DNA of 47,848 nucleotides from the NCBI GenBank assembly GCA_945888515.1, contig CAMDAD010000024.1, positions 1 to 47,848 of the forward strand, given 5' to 3'. The DNA comes from Akkermansia muciniphila. Its GTDB lineage: Bacteria; Verrucomicrobiota; Verrucomicrobiia; Verrucomicrobiales; Akkermansiaceae. The notes beneath the pieces were generated by a model, which made no database searches, was not told where the DNA came from, and saw nothing but the letters and a program-made list of their open reading frames with translations. A program made the translations under genes and the position numbers. Shown piece after piece: positions 1 to 5,300 of this stretch; the stretch's first letter is position 1, and each line of letters opens with the position of its first letter.

Positions 1-95
1 TTACGGTCATCGTGTTTTAAGATGGCGGCATGGAACTCTTTTTTTGAGATGTCGATTCCCAGACTGTATTCGATGGTTGATTGTGTGCTTTGCAT
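1..95 (-). CDS. IS110-family transposase, N-terminal fragment (cut by window edge)
   Basis: The reverse strand from the ATG at 95-93 reads MQSTQSTIEYSLGIDISKKE and then FHAAILKHDDR up to the window edge. The GIDISKKEFHAAIL segment is the first beta strand of the RuvC-like (DEDD) domain of IS110-family transposases, and the Asp at residue 15 would be the first catalytic acid. These enzymes move their element by an RNA-guided recombination rather than by DDE chemistry. The frame runs off the window, so it is unknown whether the element is whole. No Shine-Dalgarno sequence precedes the ATG. The family assignment rests on 31 residues but the motif is characteristic. Confidence 0.8.
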   Translation of the reverse strand, partial: MQSTQSTIEYSLGIDISKKEFHAAILKHDDR

Positions 96-460
96 GTGTT
101 ACTTCTGCTTTGGTTTGAGCCACCAATAATAAGCCTTGTGGAAGCATACAGCTGATAACCTGACTCGTGATGCGGACTCGAGATCCAAGATGCGGTTCGG
201 TTTTTAACAGCATGCGAGAGAGGCGGAGTCCAGTCTGACCCTCGGGATTAAATCCTTGGTGATGTCCTAATTCGGTTTACTCCGCTTCTCCCACAAGCAA
301 GGTGGGTGGACATGCTAACAGATGCTGTCAACCTGCCCGGAACGAATCATACGAGTCTTCGGGGGCAGTCCGAGCATGGCAACATGTTAGATTATTTGAT
401 GAAAATTGGTAAGCGTTCTATGAAGCGCCTCTAGTCATAAAAGTCATAGATACTAACCTG
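96..460 (-). mobile_element. IS110 left end, long non-coding region upstream of the transposase
   Basis: No plausible coding sequence lies between the transposase start at 95 and lutB at 662, about 565 bases. In the IS110 subgroup (as opposed to IS1111) the long non-coding end lies 5' of the transposase and encodes the bridge RNA. The right boundary given here is a guess: IS110 elements have no clear terminal inverted repeats, and the only landmark I see is a direct repeat AGTCATA-AA-AGTCATA at 434-449. The remainder up to about 600 is probably flanking DNA and holds a terminator-like hairpin at 570-594. Confidence 0.55.
205..375 (-). ncRNA. Candidate IS110 bridge RNA (structured core)
   Basis: Read on the minus strand, the region can fold into several stems. 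Bases 279-290 pair with 218-229 over 12 positions with one mismatch (222/286), enclosing a 49-base internal loop that itself holds a small hairpin (245-255). CCCAC/GTGGG pairs at 290-294/302-306 around a 7-base loop. CTGCCC/GGGCAG pairs at 333-338/363-368. A 6-bp stem joins the CATGCT and AGCATG segments that flank this hairpin. Successive stems with large internal loops upstream of an IS110 transposase match the known layout of bridge RNAs, whose loops recognise target and donor DNA. The ends, the strand and the identity of the guide segments are inference. Note that mismatch 222/286 would be a G-U wobble on the plus strand, so a plus-strand RNA is not excluded. Confidence 0.5.
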
Positions 461-569
461 CGGCACTTATAACTACGACGAGTCATTCAGACGAAACTGG
501 CAACCCGGCCGCAGAACCGAGCCAACTGCTCAAGACCGATGACCTTGGTCGCACTGTAGTGCCCCTTCC

Positions 570-594
570 AAAGGATCGTCCTTTTTCTTTTTTC
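570..594 (+). terminator. Terminator-like hairpin upstream of lutB
   Basis: AAAGGA (570-575), loop TCG, TCCTTT (579-584), followed by a T-rich run to 593. The form is that of a Rho-independent terminator reading rightward, but the stem is short (6 bp) with few GC pairs. No plus-strand gene precedes it in the window, so it would end a transcript that came from a now displaced neighbour or an unannotated RNA. Confidence 0.35.
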
Positions 595-614
595 TTGGCT
601 GTCACACTCTCCGA

Positions 615-642
615 TTTCCATTTGCGGAAACTGTGCTAGGTT
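615..642 (+). promoter_or_regulatory. Possible lutB promoter
   Basis: TTTCCA at 615-620 and TAGGTT at 637-642 are 16 bases apart, about 20 bases before the lutB ATG. The -10 element is the same hexamer as in the candidate promoter of the ROK kinase gene (38207-38212). The -35 match is weak. Confidence 0.3.
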
Positions 643-661
643 TCCCGCAGCTCATAAAACC

Positions 662-2047
662 ATGCACCAACTGATCGACTCCTACGCGCAGGCCATTTCC
701 GATGAAAAGCAAGCAGCCGTCATCGATGGCTCCGCGGCCGGCACGGAAAAGCGCTACAAGGTTCTGTTTCACGACTACCAGAACCCGGATGCCCTGCGCC
801 GCCTCGCGGGCAAGATCAAGGATCACACACTACATCATTTGGAGGAATACCTACCGAAAGCCGAGGCCGCGCTGAAACAAAATGGCGCCCATGTCCACTT
901 CGCTGATTCCGCAGACGATGCCAAGGCGACGATTTTGGAAATTCTCCGCTCGCACGAAGTCACGCGCCTCACGAAATCGAAGTCGATGGCGGCGGAAGAA
1001 ATCCACCTCAATCCCTACTTGATCGAAAACGGCATCGAGTGCCTAGAATCGGACCTCGGCGAGTTCATCATCCAGCTCGATGACGATGAGCCCTCGCACA
1101 TCGTCAAGCCCATCATCCACAAGAACCGCCGGGACATCGCCAAAACATTTCTGCGCGAAGGCATCGCTAACGATTACAACGACGACCCGCAAACCATCAC
1201 CCACCGCGCCCGCTACCACCTGCGCGAAAAATACATGGAAGCCCAGGCCGTCATCACCGGTGCGAACTTTGTTTCGGCGGAATCCGGACGCCTCGTGCTG
1301 GTGACAAACGAAGGCAATACCCGCTTCGGCATGGCACCAGTGGATGTGCACATCGCCTTAGTCGGCATCGAAAAAATCGTGCCCACCGATCGTGACCTCG
1401 GCGTTTTCCTGAATTTGTTAGGTCGCTCCGCCACCGGCCAGCAGCTCACCGTTTACACAGAGTTCGTTAAAGGACCGAAGTCTCCTACCCAACCCTCTGG
1501 TCCCACCAACATGCACGTGGTGTTCATGAATAATGGCCGCACAGAAGTGCTGGAATCGAAATGCCGCGAAATTTTGCGCTGCATCCGCTGCGGTGCCTGT
1601 CAGAATGTTTGCCCGGTCTATCGCCAAGCATCGGGCCACGCCTACCGCTCGCCCTACGGCGGTCCGGTGGGTGCCGTGCTATCGCCACTGCTCTTCGGCG
1701 ACCGCTTCCCCGAACTCGCCGATCTCCCCAAGGCCTCGTCGCTCTGTGGAGCCTGCAACGAGGTCTGCCCCGTGGATATTCCAATTCCCGACTTACTCCT
1801 ACGCCTGCGCGACAAAGCGAAACAAGAAAAAGTTTACTCCCCCGGAGCACTACCGATGAGTCCCTTCGCCACGCTCGCCACCTCACCGTCCGTCTGGCGC
1901 ACCGCCATGAACATGAGCAAAGCGATGAATCATTTGCCCATGCATATGACCCCGCTCAAGCCGCTCCAAGAGTGGCTCAACCAGCGCACACTCCCCGCTT
2001 GGAAAGGCGGCGACTTCCGCAAGTGGATGGAAAAGCGCCAGAAGTAG
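662..2047 (+). CDS. lutB: LutB-type iron-sulfur protein of lactate oxidation
   Basis: 461 residues, close to the usual LutB length. The N-terminal two thirds is the LUD (DUF162) domain. The C-terminal part carries two 4Fe-4S motifs of the ferredoxin type: Cys307, Cys310, Cys313, Cys317 (CIRCGACQNVCP) and Cys362, Cys365, Cys369 (CGACNEVCP). In the family, LutA, LutB and LutC form a cytoplasmic L-lactate oxidising complex that passes electrons to the quinone pool. Here neither lutA nor lutC is next to the gene: upstream lies the IS110 end and downstream an intergenic region and the convergent hrpA. The partners may be elsewhere or lutA may have been separated by the insertion. The start ATG has no Shine-Dalgarno sequence. 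Confidence 0.9.
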   Translation: MHQLIDSYAQAISDEKQAAVIDGSAAGTEKRYKVLFHDYQNPDALRRLAGKIKDHTLHHLEEYLPKAEAALKQNGAHVHFADSADDAKATILEILRSHEVTRLTKSKSMAAEEIHLNPYLIENGIECLESDLGEFIIQLDDDEPSHIVKPIIHKNRRDIAKTFLREGIANDYNDDPQTITHRARYHLREKYMEAQAVITGANFVSAESGRLVLVTNEGNTRFGMAPVDVHIALVGIEKIVPTDRDLGVFLNLLGRSATGQQLTVYTEFVKGPKSPTQPSGPTNMHVVFMNNGRTEVLESKCREILRCIRCGACQNVCPVYRQASGHAYRSPYGGPVGAVLSPLLFGDRFPELADLPKASSLCGACNEVCPVDIPIPDLLLRLRDKAKQEKVYSPGALPMSPFATLATSPSVWRTAMNMSKAMNHLPMHMTPLKPLQEWLNQRTLPAWKGGDFRKWMEKRQK

Positions 2048-2317: not shown

Positions 2318-5300
2318 TCACTCCAACCCCTCCCACGCCATCCGGATCTTCTTCTCGGAGATACTCCCCTTAACCGGAATATTCGGCGCGAAAAGCGAGA
2401 CACGGTATTCTAACAACATCCACCCCATCGGCCACAGCTCGCACCGCTGCGGCGCGCGCTTCCACGCATCAAACCAGCACTCCCACTGTTCCCGCACGCG
2501 TTCCATTTTTTCCAAATCCTTCTGAATCGGTAAGCTCTGCAAGCGATCGATGCGCATCTGGATCGCTTGCAAGTGACGAGGGTAATCGCACAAGGCCGCA
2601 TGCCCCGCGCGCCACGCAAATTGTTCACGTAACATCCATTGCAGTTGCTCTTCGATGTCTTGCGCCACCGCCGCAAGAAATTTCGATCCACGCTGCCGCC
2701 CACACCATTCTAACAGATTTGGCACTTGCGAGACAATCGCATCGAGCGCCTTGCCCACCGGGATAGCCGCCGCATGCCAGTCGCCGCGCGCTTTCTCCGC
2801 TGCACGCGAAAATTCCTCCGCATTCCGCGGCAAACAGCCTAGTGCCCCTTCCGCCGCGAGTTGCAACAGAGCCTCGAGCTTCGTGCCGCCCACACCGATG
2901 CGCGGCAACTCGACCCGCGCTGCCAGACCTAACGGAAATTTCTTGGTGAGATACGCCACCTGATCCGGTTGCGCCAGCATCAGCAAACGCACACATCCGG
3001 TGCGATGCGATTGTCGCGCCTGTTCCGCCTGATGAAAAGCCTGCACGCCGACGCTTTGTCCTTCATCAACGAGCGCGGGATAGGCATAGCCGCCCGTGCT
3101 TTCCACTCGCTCAGGGATCACCTCTATCGGCCAGGTTTTCGCGCCGCTGCACTGCCACTCTTCATTCGCATGCTCTTCCAACCGCTGGCGCAGGAGCGGC
3201 CTGAGTTTTTCGCGCATCTCCGCCAGATCGGTGCCCAGCAGGATTTCATTGCCGTCGTCATCGCAGACCCAGCATTTCACCTGCCACTCGGGCGGCAGCG
3301 CGCGCAGATCGATGTCCGACTCCGGCACACTGTAGCGCACACGCTTTTGCACTTGTTCGATCAAAGCCTGCACCAAGGTTTGATTCGGCAACTGATCCGC
3401 ATGAAGATCCACAAACCCACGCACAAATTCACTAATCGGCATACACGCCTTGCGCAGATCCTTCGGTAATGCACGCACCAAACATTCAACACGATCCGTT
3501 AGATAACCCAGCACCCCCCATTGCAGCGCGGCCTCGGGAAAATCCCAAAGCTGATCGATGTGCACGCCGATCGTGACACCATCATCGCGCTCGCCAGGTG
3601 CCATCGCATAATAGACGCTGTATTCCTGATCGCCCCAGGTGACCGTATCGGGAAAATCCGACAAGTCTTCTAACAAACTTTCCTCCCACACCACATCCGC
3701 TACTTCCACGAACAAGGTCTTTTCCTGCTCCATGCGCCACTGGTGAAAGGCCTTCGCCGTGCACATGCCTTGCGGGATCCTTTCATGAAAAAACGCAAAC
3801 ACCTGCTCCTCGCTCCAGAGGTAATCCGGACGTCGCATCTTCACTTCCATCAAACGCACCTCTTCACGCACTTGCTGCAAGCGCTGCAAGGACGGACACG
3901 CCGCTCGAATGCCACCACCAAGCAATCCTTCTCGAATAAACACCTCACGTGCGGCGGCAGGATCGATGCGCCCCCAGTGCACGGGCCGGTCTTTCACCAC
4001 CACCAAGCCACCGCACAGCACGGTTTCCTTGGCATACACCGCCCCCTGCTTTTCTTCCCAATACCCGTGACTGTAGCGATACGTGCATAGATGCGATGCC
4101 ACTTGCTCGACCCATGTCGGATCGATCCGTGCCATGCGCCGTGCCCACAGTCGCGTGGTCTCGACAATCTCCATGCCGATCACCCAGTCGTAGCGTTTCA
4201 CCGGAAACAAGCCCGACCCTGGAAACACAGCAAACGCGCCGCCACTCGCGCTGCGATAGACTTTTTCCTGCCCATCCCAGAGCGCGAATTGCCGTGGCAC
4301 CCCCGCGAGCAAGGACCGGTGCAACGGATCATACGCCGCCTGCCACTCAGCATCTCCCGATTCAAGGCGCAGCATCGGCGCAGGGATTTCCCAACGCAAT
4401 TCGCGTTTGCACAAATCTAACAATTCCTCATGAATGTTCGCCCATTCCATGGCGCGACGCATGTTTAGAAATGTCTCGTTGCAATACTTGCGCAGCGCAT
4501 TGCGCCGCCACTTGTCCTTTTCTTGAAAGCGTTGCAGGTCCAACCACAGGCGCAACAGTGAAAAAAAGTCCGACTGCGGATGCTTCCATCGGGCGTGCGC
4601 GGCATCAGCTTCTTTCTGTTTTTCGGCGGGTCTTTCGCGTGGGTCGCTACTCTCCAGCGCCGCGATCACTGGCAATAATTCTAACAAACACCGCTCATGG
4701 CTCGCCTCTAACAACATCCGCGCCAACCGCGGATCAACGGGCATGCGCGCCATCTGCCGCCCGGCCTCGGTGAGTTGCTTGTCCTTGCGAATCGCCCCGA
4801 CCTCGCGCAGCGTCCGGTATCCCTCCGACACGGCCTTCGTTGCAGGAGCATCGATCAAAGGAAACTCCTCAATCGACGGCAGACCTAACGAAATCATCCG
4901 CAGAATTACACCTGCCAATGAACTGCGACGGATCTCTGGATCGGTAAATTCTGGGCGTTCGGCGAGATCCTCTTCGTCATACAAACGCACACAAATTCCC
5001 TCCTTTACCCGACCGCATCGGCCCTTGCGCTGTCGCGCGCTCGCTTGGCTCACGGGCTCGATCTGCAAGCGCTGCACGCCCCGCGCCGGACTCCAGCGAC
5101 TCACCCGCGCAACACCAGAATCGACCACGCTCGTGATGCGAGGAATCGTCAGCGATGTCTCGGCCACGTTCGTCGCCAGAATCACCCGCCGCAAATTGCC
5201 TGGAGAAAACACTCGCTGTTGATCGCCCATGCTCAAGCGCGCGAACAAGGGTAAAATTTCCGTGCGAAAGTATCGTCGCCCTTCTAACGCATCCGCACAC

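What the first reader, a model, noticed from the sequence alone, without database searches (positions are those of the whole stretch)
96..460. Structured non-coding end of an IS110 element: candidate bridge RNA
A 31-residue IS110 transposase start is preceded by several hundred bases without a gene. That stretch can fold into a 12-position stem with one mismatch (218-229/279-290) around a 49-base internal loop, a CCCAC/GTGGG hairpin (290-306), a CTGCCC/GGGCAG stem (333-368) and an enclosing CATGCT/AGCATG stem. Bridge RNAs of the IS110 group lie in just this place and use internal loops to pair with target and donor DNA. I do not know whether a bridge RNA from this lineage has been described.
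Basis: partly seen in the sequence, partly recalled or inferred. Interest (0 to 1): 0.8.

Follow-up and report, generated by a model that had tools for sequence, protein, structure and literature searches.

The report
Bridge RNA of an IS110 transposon
The stretch is the left end of a jumping gene of the IS110 family and looks like the gene of a guide RNA with one loop matching the joined ends of the element and another matching its insertion sites; it is a new example of a mechanism already described in 2024.

Summary
Window 96-353 (minus strand) is the 258-nt non-coding left end of an IS110-group element; the contig start cuts the transposase after 31 codons. Sister copies and empty sites in the same genome set the core CT at 354-355. 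The strand carries guides in the IS621 order: target guides (271-263, 243-235), then donor guides (196-188, 171-164). The left donor guide equals the element's right end; the right donor guide pairs with its left end; the right target guide pairs with the right flanks CT-GACCC. A covariance model trained only on four elements whose transposases are about 40% identical finds the window at 150-291 minus (E 3.7e-6). Those relatives carry other guides that fit other ends. Joined ends form a sigma-70-like promoter. Against: the window copy's left target guide matches its own target at only 4 of 9 positions and one donor-stem pair is broken, so this copy may work poorly; transcription was not tested. 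A clean new member of a known kind.

The parts
3..95 (-). first 31 codons of an IS110 transposase, cut by the contig start
   Evidence: 77% identical over 31 residues to the intact transposase of L014
96..353 (-). non-coding left end of the element (258 nt), template of the bridge RNA
   Evidence: borders from copies at four contig ends and from empty sites
354..355 (-). core dinucleotide CT
   Evidence: comparison of left flanks, right flanks and empty sites
356..362 (-). left target in host DNA (CCGAAGA)
   Evidence: host flank, differs among copies
346..351 (-). -10-like box TATGAT; its -35-like partner TTGATT lies in the right end, so the promoter exists only in joined ends
   Evidence: none found in the linear window
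290..306 (-). possible CCCAC/GTGGG hairpin before the target loop
   Evidence: sequence; not in the minimum-energy folds
279..290 (-). 5' arm of the target-loop stem
   Evidence: covariation
263..271 (-). left target guide, ATTAGGACA in this copy (C9: ATGAGGACT; G252: ACGAGGACT)
235..243 (-). right target guide GAGGGTCAG, complementary to CT-GACCCTC
218..229 (-). 3' arm of the target-loop stem
208..215 (-). 5' arm of the donor-loop stem (GCATGCTG)
188..196 (-). left donor guide ACCGCATCT, identical to the right end plus core
164..171 (-). right donor guide AU-c-ACGAG, complementary to CT-CGTAT with one bulged base
   Evidence: register read by eye on the IS621 model
162..163 (-). handshake-type bases UC after the right donor guide, complementary to GA before the target core
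   Evidence: read by eye on the model of PMC11208158
144..151 (-). 3' arm of the donor-loop stem; base 150 differs from C9 and G252 and breaks one pair

Best explanation
This is the left end of an IS110-group (IS621-like) insertion sequence that encodes a bridge RNA on the window's minus strand. The element excises as a circle; the joined right and left ends form a promoter that drives the RNA. The RNA binds the DEDD recombinase. Its target loop pairs with REP-like repeats (GCGAGGA-CT-GACCC) and its donor loop with the joined ends (ACCGCAT-CT-CGTAT). The recombinase exchanges strands at the two CT cores, which inserts the element in one orientation. Shown here: anatomy, guide matches, homology, covariation, catalytic residues in a close relative. 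Inferred from IS621: transcription, RNA binding, circle formation, strand exchange. The window copy itself may be weakened by changes in its left target guide and donor stem.
For: Four-guide ordered match scores of 30 (C9) and 31 (G252) are reached by 0 of 1000 dinucleotide shuffles each (best 26) and by none of 732 real stretches of the window contig (best 26). The window scores 29 (0 of 1000), or 27 if its left guide is held to its true place (4 of 9). Leaders of the 40%-identity group score 30 with that group's ends and 22 with ours; ours score 24-25 with theirs. Covariance model from that group alone hits window 150-291 minus, E 3.7e-6. Compensatory changes: 3 pairs in four relatives, 11 of 20 pairs in 15 aligned matches. 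Empty target sites in the same genome. Promoter across joined ends. Transposase of the close relative G252: IS621 8wt6 E 4.3e-55, ISCro4 9t56 E 8.9e-56, DEDD and serine residues kept, NCBIfam 'IS110 family RNA-guided transposase'.
Against: No transcript data. No Rfam match in 1-700. Folding energy of the window copy is ordinary (20 of 200 shuffles as good). The left target guide of the window copy matches its target at 4 of 9 positions. Among 13 elements the left guide fits its target from 0 to 6 of 7. L086 scores no better than 3 of 1000 shuffles. The complete transposase of this very element is not assembled.
Confidence: 0.93

Rival explanations
1. The region was a bridge RNA gene but this copy is now decayed, or is moved only by the RNA and enzyme of sister copies such as C9.
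For: Against C9 (361 compared bases) the window differs in the left target guide (two places) and at a base that breaks a donor-stem pair. In the three copies with the changed guide (C24, C12, C19) the C9 guide would fit the target better: 6, 7, 6 of 9 against 4, 5, 5.
Against: The changed guide is present in three of four copies, so it has been able to spread. Guides ending in CA recur in other lineages (G165, L094, L097, L098, L102).
Confidence: 0.35
2. The non-coding stretch is only an untranslated leader and promoter region, and the guide matches are chance or subterminal repeats of the ends.
For: The left donor guide is by nature a copy of the right end, and IS ends often hold internal repeats (general knowledge).
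Against: Scores beyond shuffles and beyond 732 real stretches; the right target guide matches host DNA outside the element; the same layout with other letters in the 40% group; covariance-model hit.
Confidence: 0.03

Closest known systems
IS621 and its bridge RNA (Escherichia coli; PMC11208160, PMC11208158, passages read)
   Same: RNA region in the left end; guide order; CT core; target in REP-type repeats; split right donor guide; handshake bases; promoter across joined ends; catalytic residues.
   Different: Different guides; right target guide of 7-9 nt instead of 4; one bulged base in the right donor guide instead of two; Akkermansiaceae host; left target guide of this copy does not fit at the second core base.
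ISCro4 recombinase (PDB 9t56)
   Same: Best sequence match of the relative's transposase among solved structures (E 8.9e-56).
   Different: Its RNA was not compared here.
seekRNA of IS110 and IS1111 elements (PMC11187229, passages read)
   Same: RNA from the long non-coding region with short matches to both target strands; natural reprogramming noted there.
   Different: IS1111 elements carry it downstream of the gene; here it is upstream, as in IS110.

Membership tests
IS110-group element with bridge RNA | DEDD recombinase with C-terminal Tnp domain | tested here: met
   Met in the close relative L014 (residue numbers assume the PDB chain is offset by 2 from the paper). The window holds only 31 residues.
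IS110-group element with bridge RNA | long non-coding left end upstream of the gene, short right end | tested here: met
   258 nt against about 10-20 nt
IS110-group element with bridge RNA | donor loop matching the joined element ends | tested here: met
   left donor guide 9 of 9, right donor guide 7 of 7
IS110-group element with bridge RNA | target loop: right target guide matches right flank | tested here: met
   7 of 7 to CT-GACCC; 5 of 7 right flanks are GACCC, 7 of 7 GAC
IS110-group element with bridge RNA | target loop: left target guide matches left flank | tested here: inconclusive
   C9 7 of 9, G252 8 of 9, but window 4 of 9 and C12, C19 5 of 9
IS110-group element with bridge RNA | conserved two-loop secondary structure | tested here: met
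   outer donor stem of the relatives' model not kept in the window's clade
IS110-group element with bridge RNA | promoter across the joined ends | tested here: met
   consensus match only: TTGATT-16-TATGAT, 9 of 12
IS110-group element with bridge RNA | RNA is made, binds the recombinase and directs recombination | not testable with these tools
   needs experiment
IS1111 group | long non-coding region downstream of the gene | tested here: not met
   the long region is upstream; subterminal inverted repeats were not searched for

The most novel reading that the evidence does not exclude
The copies with left target guide ATTAGGACA are a naturally retargeted or relaxed form. With a guide that does not pair at the second core base they rely mainly on the 7-9 nt right target guide, and have spread also to sites (CCGAAGA, CCAAGGA) outside the usual repeat. 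Guides ending in CA recur in other lineages, so the left guide's last core position may be dispensable in this branch.
Probability: 0.15. Interest if true: 0.5.

Novelty: new member of a known kind. Interest (0 to 1): 0.3.

Why it matters
It extends the bridge RNA rules (guide order, CT core, split right donor guide, promoter across joined ends, REP-like target) to an Akkermansiaceae lineage in which sister copies and empty sites lie in one genome. That gives a comparative data point and a possible further programmable recombinase. It changes no concept.

Tried and rejected
Rfam scan of 1-700: no match. First border estimate (window 361) rejected: the BLAST match ran into shared target letters; empty sites moved the core to 354-355. 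An early reading of ACGAGTCAGG as complementary to the joined ends was corrected: GAC belongs to the target. The G249 match lies inside a long open frame and is taken as chance. The G248 copy has lost its left end and was not used. Alignment A1 of both clades misplaces the target loop and was not used for pair counts. In the 21-source model search, the cut leaders L003, L004, L015 and L016 and the more distant elements L027, L031, L034, L037, L045, L087, L088, L089 gave no match. A scan of named genomes with the L014 transposase confirmed only the two relatives already held. Literature searches: bridge RNA + IS110 + IS621 (4 papers), two of IS110, Akkermansia, bridge RNA (23 papers, 20 listed), seeker RNA + IS1111 (1 paper), IS110 + Verrucomicrobi + insertion sequence (5 papers). 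I saw no paper on a bridge RNA from this lineage in these listings; only three papers were opened.

Full report
Anatomy. The window is a whole contig (C24) of a genome of 3.36 Mb in 54 contigs. Two genomes of the same genus in the held set, G252 and G248, correspond to records titled 'Akkermansia muciniphila' MAG and 'Akkermansiaceae bacterium'. On the minus strand an IS110 transposase starts at 95 and runs off the contig. DNA 1-361 recurs at three further contig ends: C9 in full, C12 and C19 for about 150 bases, each with a different host flank. G252 holds an intact 337-residue transposase (L014 248-1261); G248 holds a copy whose left end is gone. Right ends were found at C33 (two) and C40, with a remnant in C6.

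Borders and core. Left flanks of C24, C9, C12, C19 and G252 C115 all end in GACT before CGTATG (5 of 5). Of seven right ends (C33 twice, C40, C6, L014, L013, G252 C152), six read ACCGCATCT and the C6 remnant an altered form; all seven continue with GAC and five with GACCC. Exact copies of ATGTTACCNNGCGAGGAC without the element continue with TGAC. Seven places match GCGAGGACTGACCC with at most one mismatch, three exactly, against two for the reversed control. The simplest cut is GCGAGGA-CT-GACCC with core CT at 354-355. Two of these sites flank, as inverted repeats, a Y1_Tnp (IS200-like) gene on C12; near the copies on C8 and C43 I saw no such gene by eye, without a family search. I read the target as an interspersed REP-like repeat, as reported for IS621; that label is inference.

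Guides. On the minus strand the leader holds, in the IS621 order: left target guide 271-263, right target guide GAGGGTCAG 243-235, left donor guide ACCGCATCT 196-188, right donor guide AU-c-ACGAG 171-164. The last pairs with CT-CGTAT with one bulged base where IS621 has two. The bases UC after it would pair with GA before the target core, and the A after the right target guide with the T before the donor core, as in the handshake scheme of PMC11208158 (read by eye). A score adding the best ordered matches to the four DNA partners gives 29 for the window, 30 for C9 and 31 for G252; 0 of 1000 dinucleotide shuffles of each reach it, best 26, and the best of 732 real stretches of the window contig is 26. 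In the window the score takes 6 of 9 for the left guide from another place in the leader; at the true place it is 4 of 9, which would make 27. C12 and C19 were not scored because their leaders are cut.

Independent lineage. Leaders of three elements with 40%-identical transposases (L021, L022, L023) score 30 with that group's ends and 22 with ours; ours score 24-25 with theirs. The group's ends are a composite: left target from L022, right target from L024, right end from L021 and L023. The right flanks of L021 (CTTGGAT) and L023 (CTTGTTA) fit that group's right target guide at 4 and 6 of 7, counted by eye. L022 beats 1000 shuffles (best 27). L086, a decayed copy with stops, scores 27, reached by 3 of 1000.

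Structure. In four relatives (L021, L022, L023, L086) the named helices pair in 99.1% of cells with compensatory changes in 3 of 30 pairs; 6 of 500 shuffles reach this, and slid controls pair 31-39%. A model from these four (R1) finds, in 108,645 bases, window 150-291 minus (27.6 bits, E 3.7e-6), L002 (E 4.9e-6) and L014 (E 5.4e-7), and one chance-level place elsewhere in the window (E 0.58). It matches 12 of 260 genomes of the family. On 15 matches fitted to the model, which leans the count towards it, 91.7% of cells pair and 11 of 20 pairs change on both sides, 8 of them in the 12-pair target stem; 0 of 500 shuffles reach the covariation score, 79 of 500 reach the number of further pair types. 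The outer donor stem of the model is not kept in the window's clade, which can use GCATGCTG/CAGTATGC instead.

Promoter. Joined ends give TTGATT-16-TATGAT (9 of 12) for this element, TTGAAT-16-TATGAT in G252 and TTGATT-18-TAAGAT (8 of 12) in L021 and L023; in L021 another place scores 8 as well. IS621 forms its promoter in the same way. The linear window 1-700 has none by the same kind of scan.

What does not fit. Against C9 the window differs at two places in the left target guide and at one donor-stem base. Its guide ATTAGGACA matches its own target at 4 of 9 positions and the targets of C12 and C19 at 5; the C9 guide would match these at 6, 7 and 6. Over 13 elements with a visible left flank, guide and target agree at 48 of 91 positions (core left out) against 36.1 for shuffled pairs, p 0.0009; for nine distinct elements 31 of 63 against 24.6, p 0.02; L093 and G165 do not fit (0 and 1 of 7). 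Guide registers in that table were set by eye. Left out of it: L021 and L023 (contig starts at the element), L095, L096, L101, L103 (no recognisable left border), G137 (leader cut). The left target guide is the weakest part of the case.

Verdict. This is a new member of a known kind. PMC11208160, PMC11208158 and PMC11187229 were seen as passages, not in full.

Noticed in passing
window 263-271; L003, L004, L016, L094, L097, L098, L102: Left target guides ending in CA instead of CT recur in several lineages, so the guide does not pair at the second core base; unexplained.
   Followed up: partly
L013 (G248 C3), about 2360-2440, minus strand: A 90%-identical transposase whose left end is missing: an apparently intact target (CCAAGGACTGACCCC) runs straight into the transposase start, so this copy has no bridge RNA.
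   Followed up: no
L051 (C33), about 1384-1646: Two right ends of the element in tandem, the second truncated, next to each other at a contig end.
   Followed up: no
L076 800-1900 (C12): A Y1 transposase gene flanked by inverted copies of the IS110 target repeat; one copy overlaps the gene's 3' end.
   Followed up: partly
L075 2780-2990 (C43): Two tandem copies of a 95-base unit, each containing the target repeat with GAGGCCTGACCC.
   Followed up: no
L086 (G404), leader: The 417-nt leader carries an inserted inverted repeat before the target loop.
   Followed up: no
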